Shown here piece by piece: positions 1-52,161 of a stretch of 64,000 nucleotides of DNA. Location of the stretch: the NCBI GenBank assembly GCA_019925095.2, contig CM034389.1, positions 26,786,935 to 26,850,934 on the forward strand, written 5' to 3'. Each line of letters opens with the position of its first letter. The stretch's first letter is position 1. The notes beneath the pieces were generated by a model that saw nothing but the letters and a program-made list of their open reading frames with translations, searched no databases and was not told the origin of the DNA. Position numbers and translations under genes: made by a program. The DNA comes from Dendrolimus kikuchii (Eukaryota; Arthropoda; Insecta; Lepidoptera; Lasiocampidae).

Positions 1-45
1 ATAAATATTAAAGTTATTGAAATAGTAAAATTTATTTAAAAGACT

Positions 46-95
46 ATGGCTGAAATATCGTGGCCTTGGCAGTACAACTTTCCTCCTTTTTTTAC
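46..95 (+). CDS. Vps25: VPS25 coding exon 1
   Basis: Sixteen codons plus two bases, starting at ATG 46-48 and ending before a consensus donor GTAAGT (96-101). It encodes the start of the protein through the FPPFF motif. If the intron is not removed, translation ends at once on TAA 97-99. Confidence 0.93.
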
Positions 96-3000
96 GTAAG
101 TAGTCACTTGTTTGTCTTTATAAATTTATATCCTATCTTATAAAACATGAAGTTATTGGGACAAAACTGGAAGTATATAAACGAAGGGAACGCTCATATA
201 GTTCTGGAATTACTGGACACAGACTATGTGCTTCGTTTAATCAAAGAAGACGGAAAGCCGACCGAAATTCATCATGTACGAACTTCAGTTGATTTTGTGA
301 ACAGGGTAATGTCTCCCTTACTTCTGCTTGGTGAATATAATAAACAGGAAACAGTTACAATTTCCGAAGAAGAATTATGTAATATCAGTCGCGAATTACA
401 TGAGCTACGCCCAGAACATCGAAGGCATAAGTCAACACTGAGCCCTCATGCTATAAAAGCACCAAATTTATCTATAATCAGCCCACAATGTGCAGTGAAC
501 TATTGTGTAGAGATAAAACCTAAAGAAGGGTTTCTATCAAAAAGTTTAAACAAATATAATAAGTGTTATTTTTGCCTTAAACAATACTTGAAACTGGAAA
601 ATAAAGAAATCTCATCGCTGAGTAAATATTGTCCTTTGAATCTTTTTTCTGGAGACAAGACGAAAATGAAACATGCTCTTAAGAGTTTAATAGAATGCCC
701 ACAGAATAATTTTAAATTGTTTGAAAATGGAATTTTGATTTATGGGGATGAGTGTAAGGAAAATGTTTTTGATGATATTGTAAAGGATAAAATTAATTTT
801 CAGTCTGTTGATATTTTTGTTGATTTTATAATAGATATTTTATCCAAGGATGTCTGTAATGCATATAAAATTCCTCATATGCCCAATCTATATAGAACAG
901 ACTATAAAGACAATTACCCATTAAAAAATGCAATATTAGATAGGTTGTTAAAAATTCAGAAACTTACAGATAACATTGAAATCAATGTTGCCAGCATTAA
1001 TATAAAAAACCTTGAATATGTACCAAAAATTTTGCAAGAAATAGAAATTAACAATTTTAGTCTTAAATCAGACAAAGACAGAGATTTATTTTTAAAGACC
1101 ACGGACCCGATATATTTGGCACTTATATCAGCTGTCGCAAAGGACTGTTCAATTATGATAAGTTTTTCATCAGATGTAGATGAAAACCATTCATTGATAC
1201 AAGTTGGTGACAAAACTATGTGTTACAAGGTGTCTTTAACAGATTTGGAGCCAAAATCTGTGACAACATTAACTAAAAGATTGGTTACTGAAAGAGATAT
1301 AACTCGAGCATATGAGAACTTTTTAATGGATGGAAGAGAGATAGAATGTAAGTATTGTGAATGATGTTTGATTGTTTATACCCTAGATTAAAATTGTCCT
1401 GTAGTTATTGATATTTTGCTATTTTATTAAAAAAAGTGTAATATTGATTAAGTTTATTATAGTTTTGGTATGTTAATTGTTAATCTATAATACTATTATA
1501 AAATTGTACAAGTGTCTTAGATTTTTTGTGTGCTGTTTATTCAGGATTCACGTAAAAACTGCTGGACCAATTCTTAGACTTAAAATCGGTGGTATTTTAT
1601 ATCCCAGGAATCCCACCAGAATTTTTCGGGTGTGGTTTAAAGTGGCCTGCTTAAAAAAAATTTAGATTTTGATATAATATTTTCACTGATAGGTTGCAAA
1701 TTGTCTATCATAAAATCTGTAATACTTTATGTCCCGGGAATTTAGCGGAACTTTTACCAGGAGTAGTTCCAAGTTATGAGGACACATATAAATTAGCTTA
1801 TTCCGTCCAACGTGGACAAAGTCCCGAGTGAATCCTAGTCTATAATATAATTAATTTGCAGAAGGTTCGAGTTTGTACAGTGCTATAAAAAATTGTGGTG
1901 GGTTTACTACCCTAGAAATAGGAAGACCAGAGCTCAGTAGTGATAAGTTTATGGGCTAATATCCACCATAGACATGCATTGTCTATGGTCCTGGATAACA
2001 AAAGTCTATTATATAAATCACTGTTTACTTTTTGATTCAGTAGAGATGTGAAACAAGAATCGTTGCATTTTGTATGCCACTTAAACCAGTGAAATTCTAA
2101 TTTCTTTATTTTCAGAATCCAACCTCACACAGAAACAAAAGCAAAGCAATTAGAAGCATGGGAACAACTAATAGCGGAGTACATGAAAACCACAAAACAA
2201 TCAACGTTAGATATAAGAGAATCACAGAACAGTCCATTATTTAGCAATGCGAGTATTAACAGAAAGCTGTCTCAGGAGTCAATTCTAACAATACTAGAGG
2301 ATATGGCGAAAACGGGAAGAGCCGCACCCGTGGACAAGAGTAAGAATGTATGGGAAGTTTACTGGCATTCACTGGACGAGTGGGGCAATATGGTGTACAC
2401 TTGGGCATGTAATAATGGTATGAATAATTCTGTCTGCACCTTGTTTGAGTTGAGAGAAGGCGACAATACAGCCGATGAAGGTAAAATGTTTAATTTAACT
2501 TTTAATAATTATATCCTTATCTATTTAATGTACTTAATGTTGGTATATATAATAATATCAGCCCATTAATGTCCCCGTGCAGGGCTCGGGCCTCTCATTA
2601 TATCTGCCATGCTTATGCTTGTCCAAGGCTTGGCAGGTTTGACACATCGACATGCAGGTTGCATCACGATGTTTTCCTTCAACGTTGTTAGCATGTGGTA
2701 ATTATAACGATATGCACATTAGGTCAGAAAACTGCCTAAATGGTGTATCCATTCCAGACAGGATCGAACCCGCGCCCTGTGAGTTTGGGACGCGTACGCT
2801 AGCCATTACACTACCACGACTTTATGATAAATATAACATTTGTGTATTTATTACTAAAATGTAAGTAGTCATACTATAATTTGCCTATACCAGCTTCATC
2901 ATTATCATCTCAATTCATTTCTGGGATTGTCTGGAAGAAATCTCTTTTAGCAATATGATTGCTCTTCTTGCATAATTATGTGTAGTTTGTTTGTAAGTTC

Positions 3001-5635
3001 ATTGTTTGTATTGGCATAATCAAAATTCTTACTAATACTTTTAAAGTGAGTTGGTTTGTTCCTCCCATTAGTCATATTTGATTTTGTGTAATTTGATACA
3101 TATTTTATAATATGTTCTTTATAAACTGACGATGAACATAGATAATTATTATCATCATATCATATAAGAGTACTAGTGGAATAGACAACAAATATATATA
3201 TATAGTATTGGTGTAAAACAGTTGCAGGTTGACTTGTGTGTTTGTGTGGATTGTTTTTTTTTTTTTTAATAATCGGCAGACAAACACACACATTGTATAT
3301 CCCCAAATTAAGCAAGTTACGCTTGTGTTATGGGTAATATACAACGGACTACTCTGGGACCGATCCCAGACACCCAGACTATAGTAAATAACGGAGAAAA
3401 GACGTTTTCTGAAATTTACTATACCAGGAATCGAACCCGGAGCCTCTGCGTTGCAGTGAGGTAGGCCGGCAAAGGCTTAGCCCGCTCAACCACAGAGGCC
3501 GTCAATGTGTTTCCACAGTTTTCTGAGGTGTGAAAAGACCAACAATTTTATTGAGTTGGTATTAGAATGTGAATGAATGAATGAATGTTCTTTATTGCAT
3601 ACATAAGTTACATATACAATAGGAGGTCTTATCGCCGCCGGTGATATCTTTCAGACCACCTTTGCAATTATTAAAAATAATGGATTTATTTTATATTATT
3701 TTATTATGTTTAAGGCTTGGCAACTAGGCCTTTAAGCCAAGCGCCGTTGTATTGTAGGCTACAAGCGACGTCATTCAACGGAGTTCTTGTGAAAACTCGA
3801 AAGGCCACATTTGGCTATATAGGTCACATTTCTCGCAAAAACACATAATTACTACTCAAAAACTCAATATCCCACAACTATTGTTCATTTTAGAGTAATT
3901 TTACACATTTTTAGAAAATAAAACTGCACAGCGCAACGTTTCCTTTCAATTCCCACCAAAAACTCTAAAAATAATGGAAAAAAAGAAAAAAATTAACATA
4001 GATTATAAAACAAAGAGAAAATTTAATTAAATGTCAAAAAAAGAAAAACTAATATTGATGAACGCATGTGTTTATTGATTCCTTAATATTTTAATGTATT
4101 ATTAAGTTAATTAGTTAAGTTAATTAGTAATGTAATTAATACATCTGACAAGATACTTATGTCAGGTTTCTATAGGTATCTTACAACCCATTCTGTTACC
4201 TTTGCTAGGAGATTGTCCTCATTGCTCCATACAAGCCACATAAATACTAGTTTCGCACGGTCTTCGACGATCTCCATTTATGATCATCGGTACGCATGTC
4301 ATACTTTATGACGTCAAGTCAGTATTACTTGGGCCTACCCTATAGACCGGGACCTGGTGGAGTTTTACCCAACGTAACCAGCCGATTTCCGCAAACCGTG
4401 GCCGTACGAACGTAGGCGACACTCTTGCAGTTTCTCCGTTATGTCGCGAATATGGAGGCTGCCGCAGATGCGAGTTTCTAACGCGGTCCTTCCGCGTGAA
4501 TTCACAAGTCTACCGCAGTATATTCATCTCCGTGACAAGCAGCTCTTGCTTGTGTCAAGTACAGGCCACGCTTCACTGCCATACGAAAGAGCAGGTCTAT
4601 TGATAGATTTATATATCTGCCCTTTTAGCTTAACCGGCATTTTCATGTCACAAATAAACGTCGTCGCGACACGAATTAAGATTTTGAAACCAGTAATTTG
4701 TTTTTTTTTTCGTTGTGTCAAACCTACATAGGGTACGTTCCATTAGGGAATACAACGACCACGTTCACGACCGCGATTGCTTACCTCCGTTACAATCGTA
4801 AACCCAAGTTAAAATTGGGCATACATATTGTACTTTTTTTTTATTGCAGGAGTTCAGCAGACAGGCAGACGGCCCACTTGAAGGAAAGCGGTTACCATCG
4901 CCTATGGACATTTGCAACACCAAAGGTGCTACAAATGCGCTGCTGCTCTCTTAAAGGAGACTGGAACCTGGTCACTAATGCCGGAACACAACTCAAGGTT
5001 GTTATGACGACATACTCTAGACCAGGAGTGGTAGCCATCCAGTCGGGCAAACGCCCTAAAACCTGGCTTTGGGTTGTTAAGTCGCCTCTTACGACAGGCC
5101 GCCCGGCCGCAGGTAATTGTATTCTTTCTCCGTTCCTGCACGGATAAACTTTCTTATTATTGTTCTTTCTAATCTTAAAACCATGAGCCTGATGATAGTA
5201 ATGGCTACGTTCCATTAGAGTCTCACAACGACCCCGTTCAAGACCGCGATTTTCCCCGTTCCACTTGCTTGCCATCGTTACAGTCGTAAACCCATTCGAC
5301 CCCCTCTTAACATGGGTTGTTGTGAGCGTTGTGTGATCGAAAATGATGTCGTCATTAGTGACGTTTTAGCCATGACCACAACGACCGCAGCCGACTTGTG
5401 GAACGGCTAACGGTGCATTTTGGGCATTGTGAGCTACTAATGTTCCACCTATAATGGAAGGCCCGAGCCCAGCAGTGGGACATTTATGGGCTGATATAAT
5501 TTATTATACTTTGTGTTTTCAGAATTTCATGGCCTAGACATGAATGTATTGATAAAGGCTCTGAAAACACTAGAACTGAAAGGAAGATGTGAGCTAATGG
5601 AATTTGACGACAATCAAGGTGTAAAGTTCTTTTAA
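46..5635 (+). CDS. Vps25: VPS25, ESCRT-II complex subunit (three exons, complete)
   Basis: The protein is the small winged-helix subunit of ESCRT-II, which acts on endosomes in sorting ubiquitinated membrane proteins into multivesicular bodies and recruits ESCRT-III. Joining 46-95, 2116-2480 and 5523-5635 gives 528 bases, that is 175 residues plus TAA; human VPS25 is of nearly equal length. All junctions are GT-AG, with phase 2 then phase 1. Exon 1 carries the N-terminal WPWQY..FPPFFT segment; in the family the PPFF-type motif contacts SNF8 and VPS36. Exon 2 holds the ESPLF-like, NNSV.TLFEL segments and exon 3 ends in GVKFF, the typical C-terminus. The start has A at -3 and G at +4. Intron 1 contains the whole IPPK gene on the same strand; intron 2 is filled with repeats. 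A likely poly(A) signal lies at 5743-5748. Recognised from memory of the family, with high confidence. Confidence 0.95.
147..1364 (+). CDS. Ippk: Inositol-pentakisphosphate 2-kinase (IPK1), intronless, nested in VPS25 intron 1
   Basis: The enzyme phosphorylates the 2-position of inositol pentakisphosphate with ATP to make inositol hexakisphosphate (phytate), the last step of that branch of inositol phosphate synthesis. The 405 residues show the family marks in order: N-lobe nucleotide-binding loop EGNAHIVLEL (13-22), the hallmark EIKPKEGFL (122-130) followed by the CYFC.KQYLK region (140-149), YCPLNLFSGD (161-170), the PQNN...L.ENG segment (185-195), and near the C-terminus AKDCSIMI (331-338) with DLEPK (366-370), the counterpart of the conserved D-L-x-x-K. 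The length fits animal members (about 400-490). The start at 147 has A at -3 and precedes all conserved parts. There are no introns, whereas vertebrate IPPK is many-exon; a retrocopy origin is possible, but the frame is intact. TATAAA at 120-125 lies too near the start to be an ordinary TATA box, so use of the VPS25 promoter is inferred. Confidence 0.93.
   Translation: MKLLGQNWKYINEGNAHIVLELLDTDYVLRLIKEDGKPTEIHHVRTSVDFVNRVMSPLLLLGEYNKQETVTISEEELCNISRELHELRPEHRRHKSTLSPHAIKAPNLSIISPQCAVNYCVEIKPKEGFLSKSLNKYNKCYFCLKQYLKLENKEISSLSKYCPLNLFSGDKTKMKHALKSLIECPQNNFKLFENGILIYGDECKENVFDDIVKDKINFQSVDIFVDFIIDILSKDVCNAYKIPHMPNLYRTDYKDNYPLKNAILDRLLKIQKLTDNIEINVASINIKNLEYVPKILQEIEINNFSLKSDKDRDLFLKTTDPIYLALISAVAKDCSIMISFSSDVDENHSLIQVGDKTMCYKVSLTDLEPKSVTTLTKRLVTERDITRAYENFLMDGREIECKYCE
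1387..1431 (+). promoter_or_regulatory. Possible poly(A) signals for IPPK inside VPS25 intron 1
   Basis: Two ATTAAA hexamers, 1387-1392 and 1426-1431, follow the IPPK stop by 22 and 61 bases. They would end an IPPK transcript before VPS25 exon 2. Hexamers are frequent in AT-rich DNA, so this is suggestive only. Confidence 0.45.
1432..2115. other. Rest of VPS25 intron 1, no recognised element
   Basis: AT-rich intronic sequence between the IPPK 3' end and VPS25 exon 2. No coding signature or recognisable repeat seen; the short open frame at 1477-1665 has no family features. Confidence 0.5.
2116..2480 (+). CDS. Vps25: VPS25 coding exon 2
   Basis: Acceptor TTTTCAG ends at 2115 and donor GTAAAA begins at 2481. 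The exon encodes most of the first winged helix and the start of the second (from TIQPHTETKAKQLEAW to the DNTADE acidic turn). An ATG-initiated reading from 2183 is only the internal part of this exon running on into the intron. Confidence 0.94.
2549..2824 (-). mobile_element. SINE-U copy, tRNA-derived
   Basis: Read on the minus strand it begins with a tRNA-like head (GTCGTGGTAGTGTAATGGCT as A-box region, GGGTTCGATCC as B-box) and ends with a tail containing GGGACATTAATGGGCTGATAT. The same element occurs at 62174-62476 on the plus strand. It sits 68 bases after the VPS25 exon 2 donor. Confidence 0.8.
2880..3060 (+). mobile_element. Old Jockey-like LINE-J 3' tail
   Basis: Carries a decayed version of the tail shared with 15440-15530 and 58430-58555 (ATCATCTCAATTCATTTCTG, then GTCTGGAAGAAAT and a short stem-loop). 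Diverged, with no tail repeat visible. Confidence 0.5.
3268..3503 (-). mobile_element. SINE-T copy 1, tRNA-derived
   Basis: The minus strand begins GGCCTCTGTGGTTGAGCGGG (A-box-like TGGTTGAGCGG), has B-box GGGTTCGATTCC about 70 bases on, and ends CTGCCGATTATT. Near-identical copies lie at 35571-35815 and 46441-46680. It is in VPS25 intron 2. Confidence 0.85.
3573..3660 (-). mobile_element. LINE-J tail with (ATTC)n end
   Basis: The minus strand reads a stem-loop region ending in AATAAAGAACATTCATTCATTC. It matches the tails at 6140-6265 and 51222-51370. The short tandem repeat at the 3' end is typical of this family here. Confidence 0.65.
3712..3971 (-). mobile_element. rep-H copy 1 (retroposon-like)
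   Basis: About 260 bp shared with 7885-8203 and 29515-29826, recognised by the block TTGTTCATTTTAGAGTAATT and the end near GGCTTGGCAACTAGGCCTTT. Class uncertain; copy 2 shows poly(A) and a target-site duplication. Confidence 0.7.
4728..4805 (+). repeat. MITE-I fragment
   Basis: A partial left end of the MITE-I family (GGTACGTTCCATTAGGGAAT, then ACGACCACGTTCACGACCGC). Only about 75 bases remain. Confidence 0.55.
4834..5146 (-). mobile_element. rep-A copy 1 (about 310-bp poly(A) retroposon)
   Basis: On the minus strand the element starts TATCCGTGCAGGAACGGAGA and ends CTCCTGCAATAAAAAAAA, i.e. an AATAAA-containing poly(A) end. This suggests a SINE or the 3' end of a LINE; no coding region is confirmed. 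The flanks match the uninterrupted sequence at 6524-6600, so the insertion can be placed to within a few bases. It is in VPS25 intron 2. Confidence 0.85.
5200..5446 (+). mobile_element. MITE-I copy 1
   Basis: About 250-bp repeat with imperfect inverted ends: left GCTACGTTCCATTAGAGTCT, right GAGCTACTAATGTTCC (elsewhere GAGCTAGTAATGGAACGCG). It has no coding capacity. Copies at 6594-6860, 7639-7876 and 56456-56640 (-). Confidence 0.7.
5450..5502 (+). mobile_element. SINE-U 3' tail fragment next to VPS25 exon 3
   Basis: Matches the last 50 bases of SINE-U (GGCCCGAGCCCAGCAGTGGG, then ATGGGCTGATAT). It ends about 20 bases before the exon 3 acceptor and is complementary to 2555-2602 at the other end of the same intron. 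Confidence 0.7.
5523..5635 (+). CDS. Vps25: VPS25 coding exon 3 and stop
   Basis: Acceptor GTTTTCAG ends at 5522. The exon supplies the second half of the second winged helix (FHGLD....LIKALKTLELKG) and the conserved end GVKFF before TAA 5633-5635. It is too short to show as a separate open frame and was found by family comparison and phase. Confidence 0.93.
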
Positions 5636-5742
5636 ATCACTTGTGGTTTGTTGTTTCTATGTAATTAGAGGTGTATTACCTTTTTAATAACATTATGTTA
5701 AATGCATTTTTGTTAAGTTATGTATTTAATGTTAATTAAGGA

Positions 5743-5748
5743 ATTAAA
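5743..5748 (+). promoter_or_regulatory. Possible poly(A) signal of VPS25
   Basis: ATTAAA about 108 bases after the VPS25 stop codon. Position is reasonable; not otherwise supported. Confidence 0.45.
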
Positions 5749-5876
5749 GTCTTATTTACAATGATTGGATGTTTTCTTTTTTTATGTAATGAATGGAATG
5801 TAGAGATTATTATAGACACTAACAGAATATAAGCTAGTTTAGTTTCAACGGATTTGATAACATTTGTAAATATCTT

Positions 5877-5978
5877 TACATACATAACTTCACGCCAGTT
5901 CCCTTGCGGGGTAGGCACGAACAACAAAGCGCCATTTAGGCTTATTGTTATACACCTCACTTGCTTCTTTCATTCATA
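5877..5978 (-). mobile_element. RTE-B 3' end, short truncated copy
   Basis: Contains the family's end CATACATAACTTCACGCCAG and the CCTTGCGGGGTAGGCACGAA block. Only about 100 bases of the 3' end are present. Confidence 0.75.
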
Positions 5979-6139
5979 ATTTTTACAGTATGTATGTATA
6001 TCGTATTAGTATAATTTTTATATTTTTATTAATGTGTGTATATTATATCATGTATTCATATGCCTATATTTATAAGATATTGATTCGGTAGTGAGAATAG
6101 TGCAACATACCACTGTTCTTATCAAATTTTTGTCCATAC

Positions 6140-6265
6140 AAAGGTTGTCTGGAAGAAATCGTTAATAGCGATAAGACCGCCTGTTGTATTGTAAAATTTT
6201 ATTTCTGTTAATTGTATCTTTTAAAACACAATAAAGTATATTCATTCATTCATTCATTCATTCAT
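6140..6265 (+). mobile_element. LINE-J 3' tail with (ATTC)n
   Basis: GGTTGTCTGGAAGAAATCG, a stem-loop around GCGATAAGACCGCC, then AATAAAGTATATTCATTCAT. This is the terminal part of the Jockey-like LINE-J. Confidence 0.7.
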
Positions 6266-6593
6266 GAAGTGGAAGTTATTTATCAAGACTGTGGCAAGTG
6301 GAGATTCATTGTCTCTATTGACTGCCTACCCCCATGAGAAACAAGCGTGATAATACGTATGTATGTTAATTAAAAGGGACTCAATAAAATTCAGTCAATT
6401 ATCATCATATTTTAATACAATCAATCAGTGTAAAATTGTACAGTTTCAAAATTGTTCGCCTTATTTGCTATACACATACAACACAATAAAAGAGTATAAT
6501 TGTAAAAAGTGTTCTATCTTAAAATTGGGCATACATATTGTACTTGCTTATTATTGTTCCTTCTAATCTTAAAACCGTGAGCCTGATGATAGT

Positions 6594-6860
6594 AATGGCT
6601 ACGTTCCATTAGAGACTCACAACGACCACGTTCAAGACCGCGATTTTTCCCGTTCCACTTGCTTGCCGGCGTTACAGTCGTAAACCCAAGTGGACCGGTT
6701 ATTCGACCCATCTCTTGACATGGGTCGTTGTGAGCGTTGTGTGATCAATAATGATGACATCATTAGTCACGTTTTCGCCACGACCACAACGGCTGCGGTC
6801 GCCTTGTGGAACGGCTAACGAAGGATTTTGGGCGTCATGAGCTAGTAATGGAACGCGCTG
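6594..6860 (+). mobile_element. MITE-I copy 2
   Basis: Best-preserved copy: left end GGCTACGTTCCATTAGAGAC, right end GAGCTAGTAATGGAACGCGC, which is an imperfect inverted match over about 15 bases. The preceding 6524-6593 matches the rep-A-interrupted flank at 4810-5200. Confidence 0.72.

Positions 6861-14499: not shown

Positions 14500-52161
<37,662 letters not shown>

What the first reader, a model, noticed from the sequence alone, without database searches (positions are those of the whole stretch)
46..5635. Complete IPK1 kinase gene nested, same strand, in the first intron of VPS25
An intronless, intact inositol-pentakisphosphate 2-kinase occupies VPS25 intron 1, starting 51 bases after the donor. 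Same-strand nesting so near exon 1 leaves almost no room for a separate promoter and suggests one promoter serves an ESCRT-II subunit and an inositol phosphate kinase. Inositol phosphates are linked to membrane traffic, so co-control is plausible but inferred.
Basis: partly seen in the sequence, partly recalled or inferred. Interest (0 to 1): 0.8.

Follow-up and report, generated by a model that had tools for sequence, protein, structure and literature searches.

The report
Kinase gene inside moth VPS25 intron
In this moth genome, and apparently across moths and butterflies, the only gene found for the enzyme that makes inositol hexakisphosphate sits intact inside the first intron of the membrane-sorting gene VPS25, in the same direction and about 50 bases after its first exon, so the two genes probably share one promoter region.

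Summary
VPS25 exons lie at 46-95, 2116-2480 and 5523-5635 (175 aa). An uninterrupted 405-aa IPPK (PF06090, E 3e-66) lies at 147-1364 in intron 1, 51 bases after the donor. It is the only IPPK match found in the 705-Mb genome. The pairing recurs across sampled Lepidoptera. Four gene models (Operophtera, Danaus, Eumeta, Spodoptera exigua) join IPPK to VPS25 exon 2. In seven species IPPK is named 'isoform X1' and VPS25 'X2' or 'X3', on contigs of equal length. One Vanessa-like record has VPS25 exon 1 unspliced 48 bases upstream of IPPK. Outside Lepidoptera, 10 of 11 comparable species have the genes on contigs of different length. No splice acceptor lies between exon 1 and the IPPK start, so IPPK mRNA must either keep exon 1 unspliced or start between about 49 and 146. 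Unspliced, exon 1 reads MAEISWPWQYNFPPFFT-stop, a 17-codon upstream ORF. A shared promoter region with alternative RNA processing seems most likely, but no transcript data were available. The nearest known arrangement is the cholinergic locus (VAChT inside ChAT intron 1), which shares exon 1 by splicing; this locus cannot. Interest is moderate to high.

The parts
46..95 (+). VPS25 exon 1 (MAEISWPWQYNFPPFFT, phase 2 end)
   Evidence: nearly the same N-terminus in lepidopteran VPS25 proteins read in full (P0122, P0136, P0141; P0133, P0137)
46..99 (+). 17-codon upstream ORF if intron 1 is retained; its stop TAA (97-99) lies inside the splice donor
   Evidence: translation of the unspliced stretch; one search shows 46 and 147 are the only ATGs in 46-160 and none in 1-45
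96..101 (+). splice donor GTAAGT of VPS25 intron 1
96..146 (+). 51-base leader between donor and IPPK start; AG only at 99 and 102, both within or next to the donor
147..1364 (+). intronless IPPK (inositol-pentakisphosphate 2-kinase), 405 aa
   Evidence: only match in own genome
1387..1431 (+). two ATTAAA candidate poly(A) signals for IPPK (1387 and 1426), with T/GT-rich sequence downstream of 1426; no more frequent than chance (2 seen, 1.8 expected for AATAAA or ATTAAA in 1365-2115)
2116..2480 (+). VPS25 exon 2
5523..5635 (+). VPS25 exon 3 with stop

Best explanation
This is a conserved lepidopteran two-protein locus. An intronless copy of IPPK settled in intron 1 of VPS25 before the sampled Lepidoptera diverged and became the only IPPK gene. 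Transcription starts at or just upstream of VPS25 exon 1. If intron 1 is spliced out, the mRNA makes VPS25. If the transcript is not spliced and is cleaved after IPPK (candidate ATTAAA signals at 1387 and 1426), the mRNA makes IPPK, and VPS25's first 17 codons remain as an upstream ORF that scanning ribosomes must leak past or reinitiate after. Shown here: the anatomy, the single copy found, the intact kinase motifs, the recurrence across sampled Lepidoptera, the absence of a splice route from exon 1 to IPPK, and the upstream ORF in the unspliced sequence. Inferred: the shared promoter, intronic cleavage, the translation route, and origin by retroposition.
For: Anatomy. Single IPPK. Chimeric models joining IPPK to VPS25 exon 2: P0026, P0041, P0084 and P0241. 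Isoform naming: 21 of 33 named lepidopteran IPPK rows are 'isoform X1' and none has a higher number; 10 of 22 named lepidopteran VPS25 rows are 'X2', one is 'X3' and none is 'X1'. Controls: 3 of 12 labelled non-lepidopteran IPPK rows are 'X1', and 2 of 4 labelled non-lepidopteran VPS25 rows are 'X1'. P0023 carries exon 1 plus its stop in a shifted frame, with the donor 48 bases before IPPK, the only hit of 178,488 tests over 279 proteins. Lepidopteran IPPK forms one clade at 100*.
Against: No transcript of this or any species was seen. That X1/X2 numbering means one gene model with shared exons is recalled knowledge of RefSeq practice, not tested here. 12 of 33 lepidopteran IPPK rows and 11 of 22 VPS25 rows carry no isoform label, and in species such as Vanessa cardui and Pieris napi the two proteins may be annotated as separate genes. 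The start context of VPS25 (A at -3, G at +4) and the 47-base gap after the upstream ORF predict poor IPPK translation from an unspliced RNA. The ATTAAA signals are no more frequent than chance. The long stem to lepidopteran IPPK is weak support for a relocation burst: the gene is fast in general, and single end branches such as Ptiloglossa (2.01) and Lutzomyia (2.66) are as long as that stem.
Confidence: 0.52

Rival explanations
1. IPPK has its own TATA-less start site within VPS25 exon 1 or the 51-base leader (about 49-146), with promoter elements embedded in and upstream of VPS25 exon 1. Start-site position, not splicing, then decides which protein is made, and IPPK escapes the upstream ORF.
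For: A relaxed initiator match TCACTT lies at 104. A start there gives a clean, short IPPK leader. Single-exon nested genes often have their own promoters (recalled). Some lepidopteran records carry no isoform labels.
Against: No TCAKTY initiator in 1-200 and no TATA box about 30 bases upstream of 104. The X1/X2(X3) numbering in 7 paired species suggests that IPPK models share exon sequence with VPS25.
Confidence: 0.35
2. The pair is a passive nested retrogene with no regulatory coupling beyond position; IPPK's relocation and retention in the intron are neutral history. This is not exclusive of the other readings, so its odds do not add to theirs.
For: Nesting is common: about 6% of Drosophila genes are intronic (abstract of PMC3786989 as shown in the listing). 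Lepidopteran retrocopies are numerous (PMC11675541, passages).
Against: The pairing is found from Eumeta and Plutella to nymphalids, and the donor-to-start spacing is 51 against 48 bases in two lineages. Two spacings are too few to show constraint.
Confidence: 0.4
3. Gene-model or assembly artefact, or an IPPK pseudogene.
For: The chimeric database models themselves are probably annotation errors.
Against: Intact ORF and conserved motifs; sole IPPK found in the genome; records from many species.
Confidence: 0.02

Closest known systems
Cholinergic gene locus (VAChT ORF inside ChAT intron 1)
   Same: A single-exon ORF in the first intron of a host gene that encodes a different protein, near a common first exon; described as similar in other metazoans (tick locus, passages of PMC7524744)
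   Different: In the tick locus an 82-bp exon 1 is shared by both genes and the VAChT ORF is on a second exon. Here no acceptor exists between exon 1 and IPPK, exon 1 is coding, and I know of no pathway that links the two products
H13/Mcts2-type nested loci
   Same: A nested gene in a host intron, where transcription of the nested gene promotes host intronic polyadenylation (abstract of PMC13309782)
   Different: Mcts2 has its own methylation-controlled promoter and the pair is imprinted; here the nested ORF starts 51 bases after the exon 1 donor, with little room for a separate promoter
Lepidopteran retrogenes (catalogue PMC11675541)
   Same: Single-exon intact gene in a new place
   Different: The catalogue's method needs an intron-containing parent gene, and the word inositol does not occur in its main text (passages); here no second IPPK was found, so an orphan retrogene of this kind would be missed by such a survey

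Membership tests
Inositol-pentakisphosphate 2-kinase (IPPK/IPK1) | PF06090 domain over its whole length with conserved motifs | tested here: met
   E 3e-66, profile 1-374/375; EGN, EIKPK, DCS and D-x-x-PK columns invariant in 20 sequences including the window
Inositol-pentakisphosphate 2-kinase (IPPK/IPK1) | Phosphorylates IP5 to IP6 | not testable with these tools
   needs an enzyme assay
VPS25 (ESCRT-II) | PF05871 domain and full-length similarity | tested here: met
   E 4.5e-40 for exon 2; up to 87% identity over 100% of 175 aa to lepidopteran VPS25
Cholinergic-locus-type nested gene | Same-strand single-exon ORF in host intron 1 | tested here: met
Cholinergic-locus-type nested gene | First exon shared by splicing into the nested ORF | tested here: not met
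   the only AGs in 96-146 are at 99 and 102, within or next to the donor
Cholinergic-locus-type nested gene | Common promoter giving both mRNAs | not testable with these tools
   no RNA data; indirect isoform naming only
Retrogene | Intronless relative to intron-bearing ancestor | tested here: inconclusive
   intronless here; intron content of non-lepidopteran IPPK genes was not seen
Retrogene | Poly(A) remnant and target-site duplications | not tested
   insertion is probably too old for these to be expected

The most novel reading that the evidence does not exclude
Across Lepidoptera one promoter makes two unrelated proteins by a single splice decision: splicing gives the ESCRT-II subunit VPS25, failure to splice gives the sole IP6-making kinase, and the first 17 codons of VPS25 double as an upstream ORF that throttles kinase translation, so IP6 synthesis is tied to the VPS25 splicing rate.
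Probability: 0.3. Interest if true: 0.72.

Novelty: new variant of a known kind. Interest (0 to 1): 0.56.

Why it matters
Nested same-strand genes that share a promoter region serve as models of how one transcription unit makes two products. This one joins two genes from different pathways, seems widespread and old in Lepidoptera, leaves no splice route between exon 1 and the nested ORF, and turns the host's own N-terminal codons into a candidate translational control element. It also affects annotation: four public models fuse the two proteins, and knock-down or editing of one gene in a moth could hit the other.

Tried and rejected
Pseudogene or chance ORF: rejected. A second IPPK elsewhere in the genome: none by protein or profile. 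A real fusion protein: the four chimeric models differ in where the parts are joined (after TDLEPK in Danaus, after KDCSIMI plus unrelated residues in Spodoptera exigua, across the acceptor in Operophtera), so I read them as annotation errors that reveal adjacency, not as real proteins. Sharing exon 1 by splicing: rejected for lack of an acceptor. A TATA-driven start in the leader: rejected on spacing. Structured RNA in 1-6600: none at Rfam gathering scores. Viral and prokaryotic contigs as a source of related loci: none confirmed. Papers, by listings only: 'Vps25'+'nested gene'+'intron' 0 papers; 'Vps25'+'CG30295' 0; 'inositol-pentakisphosphate 2-kinase'+'Vps25' 0; 'Vps25'+'Lepidoptera' 4, judged unrelated from titles and abstract starts; 'IPPK'+'VPS25'+'intron' 1, a lymphoma paper. 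Broader nested-gene searches showed none on this pair among the rows listed. The gene symbol CG30295 for Drosophila Ipk1 is recalled. Whether VPS25 is single-copy in this genome was not settled (requests unanswered).

The tree used 52 of the 279 proteins then held plus the window. P0026, P0041 and P0084 were cut to their IPPK part; P0241 was left out. Eight unnamed rows were labelled lepidopteran by me because they ranked above the first named non-lepidopteran hit. The rate comparison used 22 proteins plus the window for each gene, with P0041 cut; the species match except for Danaus and Pieris-independent cases named here: Danaus (two species), the fly (Culex or Lutzomyia) and the outgroups. 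All used the quick method.
Full report
What is there. The first 5.6 kb of the window hold VPS25 in three exons: 46-95, 2116-2480 and 5523-5635. The spliced product is 175 aa. Exon 2 matches the ESCRT-II subunit profile PF05871 at E 4.5e-40, and the best relatives are lepidopteran VPS25 at up to 87% identity over the full length. Intron 1 (96-2115) contains on the same strand one uninterrupted ORF, 147-1364, coding a 405-aa inositol-pentakisphosphate 2-kinase. It matches PF06090 over positions 1-374 of 375 at E 3e-66 and the solved IPPK chain 5mw8 at E 2e-26. In an alignment of 20 IPPK sequences reaching to fish, the columns EGN, EIKPK, DCS and D-x-x-PK are invariant, window included.

Copy number. 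A search of the window's own genome (705 Mb, 49 contigs) with the protein and with the Pfam profile finds this place only. The first look of these searches is loose, so a very divergent or finely split second copy is not strictly excluded. VPS25 copy number was not settled, because those requests did not complete.

Conservation across Lepidoptera. Four public gene models fuse IPPK to VPS25 exon 2 and onwards: Operophtera brumata, Danaus chrysippus and Eumeta japonica and Spodoptera exigua. The join differs between them, so I take them as mis-predictions that nonetheless show IPPK directly upstream of VPS25 exon 2 in four families (family placement recalled). Twelve lepidopteran species appear in both homology lists with a contig length for each protein. 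In 11 the length is the same: Maniola jurtina, Vanessa cardui, Galleria, Aphomia, Battus, Bicyclus, Amyelois, Aricia, Pieris napi, Plutella and Pectinophora. The exception is Manduca, whose two records seem to come from different assemblies. Pararge is in both lists but one record has no contig. Of 11 non-lepidopteran species with a length in both lists (Ptiloglossa, Cloeon, Anabrus, Neocloeon, Hetaerina, Onthophagus, Periplaneta, Ceutorhynchus, Polyplax, Macrosteles, Hypothenemus), ten have different lengths. Hypothenemus has equal lengths, but its locus tags 006750 and 006816 suggest the genes are not adjacent. These counts cover only the 120 best rows printed per search. Contig length is a proxy for contig identity, and the length printed is the longest for a 90% cluster. 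Two unnamed pairs also share lengths, P0018 with P0185 (3,023) and P0035 with P0191 (3,601), but so do P0078 and P0175 (1,412), which come from different sources and look like a chance match. The named sample is, as far as I recall, all ditrysian, so nothing is known here of the oldest moth lineages.

Isoform naming. Among 33 named lepidopteran IPPK rows, 21 are called 'isoform X1' and none has a higher number. Among 22 named lepidopteran VPS25 rows, 10 are 'isoform X2', one is 'X3' and none is 'X1'. Seven species show the complementary pair in both lists: Maniola jurtina, Galleria, Bicyclus, Amyelois, Aricia, Plutella and, with X3, Pectinophora. Among 12 labelled non-lepidopteran IPPK rows 3 are 'X1', and among 4 labelled non-lepidopteran VPS25 rows 2 are 'X1'. 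In RefSeq practice (recalled) isoform numbers run within one gene, and transcripts are put in one gene when they share exon sequence, usually on RNA-seq evidence. This is the best available hint that IPPK transcripts include VPS25 exon 1. It is indirect, and 12 of the 33 IPPK rows and 11 of the 22 VPS25 rows have no isoform label.

A direct view of the junction in another lineage. If VPS25 exon 1 runs unspliced into IPPK, its codons should appear in a shifted frame in any IPPK prediction that extends upstream. I tested the 14-residue stretches of 279 fetched proteins, in two frame shifts, for compatibility with WPWQYNFPPFFT-stop; a protein's first residue was left free because an alternative start codon is printed as M. 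Of 178,488 tests one passed: the first 14 residues of P0023. P0023 is an unnamed IPPK that groups with Vanessa (support 94). Its IPPK start is 48 bases after the donor, counting from its printed sequence, against 51 here. Whether that contig is genomic or a transcript is unknown. Six VPS25 exon 2 predictions (P0170, P0185, P0191, P0193, P0216, P0218), those I read by eye as unspliced at exon 2's start and end among the 16 proteins printed, all read R-I-Q across the acceptor, as the window does, which fits the same phase-2 intron 1 acceptor.

History. The lepidopteran IPPKs form one clade (38 rows with the window, support 100*; eight unnamed rows were labelled lepidopteran by me) separate from the other insects sampled. 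In near-matched sets of 22 proteins plus the window per gene, the stem leading to lepidopteran IPPK is 2.01 changes per column and the stem leading to lepidopteran VPS25 is 0.20. Much of this is a general difference: the median lepidopteran end branch in the same trees is about 0.71 for IPPK and 0.11 for VPS25, some six times, and Ptiloglossa (2.01) and Lutzomyia (2.66) have IPPK end branches as long as the stem. The stem is therefore weak evidence for a burst at the move. Intronless structure and sole-copy status fit a retroposed copy that replaced its parent before these families split. I did not see the intron structure of IPPK in other orders, so retroposition is an inference. A survey of lepidopteran retrocopies required an intron-containing parent (PMC11675541, passages) and would not list such an orphan.

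How it could work. Between the donor and the IPPK start the only AG dinucleotides are at 99 and 102, within or next to the donor itself. Exon 1 therefore cannot be spliced to IPPK, unlike the cholinergic locus of ticks, where an 82-bp exon 1 is shared and the VAChT ORF is a second exon within ChAT intron 1 (passages of PMC7524744). Two routes remain. In the first, transcription from the VPS25 promoter is not spliced and ends after IPPK. Candidate ATTAAA signals lie at 1387 and 1426, but two such hexamers are about the chance number, 1.8. In that RNA the first ATG after base 1 is VPS25's own at 46, which opens a 17-codon ORF closed by TAA inside the donor, 47 bases before the IPPK ATG. IPPK would then depend on leaky scanning or reinitiation and would probably be made at low level, unless VPS25's 5' leader is very short and scanning leaky. 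In the second route, a separate TATA-less start lies between about 49 and 146. A relaxed initiator match stands at 104, but there is no strict TCAKTY, and the TATAAA motifs at 119 and 139 are too close to the ATG. The stretch upstream of the window reads N in the genome source, so the promoter could not be examined. I put the shared-promoter route at about one half and the separate-start route at about one third.

Compared with what is known. The kinase and the ESCRT-II subunit are ordinary members of their families. The arrangement works like a cholinergic-type nested locus but fails the shared-exon-by-splicing feature, so it is a variant, not a member. H13/Mcts2 (abstract of PMC13309782) shows that activity of a nested gene can force host intronic polyadenylation, so interference with VPS25 is also possible here. 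Term searches of the held library found no description of a VPS25-IPPK pairing; most subscription papers are not in that library.

Verdict. Its recurrence across Lepidoptera makes it more interesting than a one-genome curiosity. The co-control idea is plausible but unproven, and the upstream-ORF consequence is a sharper and testable form of it.

Noticed in passing
23313-23711 (-) and 48308-48646 (-): Two exon-like ORFs of an organic anion transporter (OATP, PF03137, E 2.3e-16 and 1.9e-14), perhaps one long gene or two neighbouring ones on the minus strand.
   Followed up: partly
4680-5144 (+), with similar ORFs at about 17725-18168, 21042-21404, 22331-22672, 27447-27848 and 43510-43935: A repeated sequence (motifs such as [19 protein letters not shown] in several copies), without a Pfam match for the one copy tested, lies in VPS25 intron 2 and recurs through the window; probably a mobile-element remnant.
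   Followed up: no
31171-31791 (+): Likely retrotransposon remnant with weak RNase H and zf-RVT matches, both below the Pfam cut-off.
   Followed up: no
P0142 (Pectinophora VPS25 isoform X3): A VPS25 model with a different N-terminus (MSNTSVQHKNKLLV) joined at exon 2, suggesting another first exon or start inside or near intron 1 in that species.
   Followed up: no
P0143 (unnamed source, contig 1759): VPS25 exons 2 and 3 joined, preceded by a short N-terminus (MNLKIKII) that does not read across a retained acceptor, so perhaps an alternative first exon.
   Followed up: no
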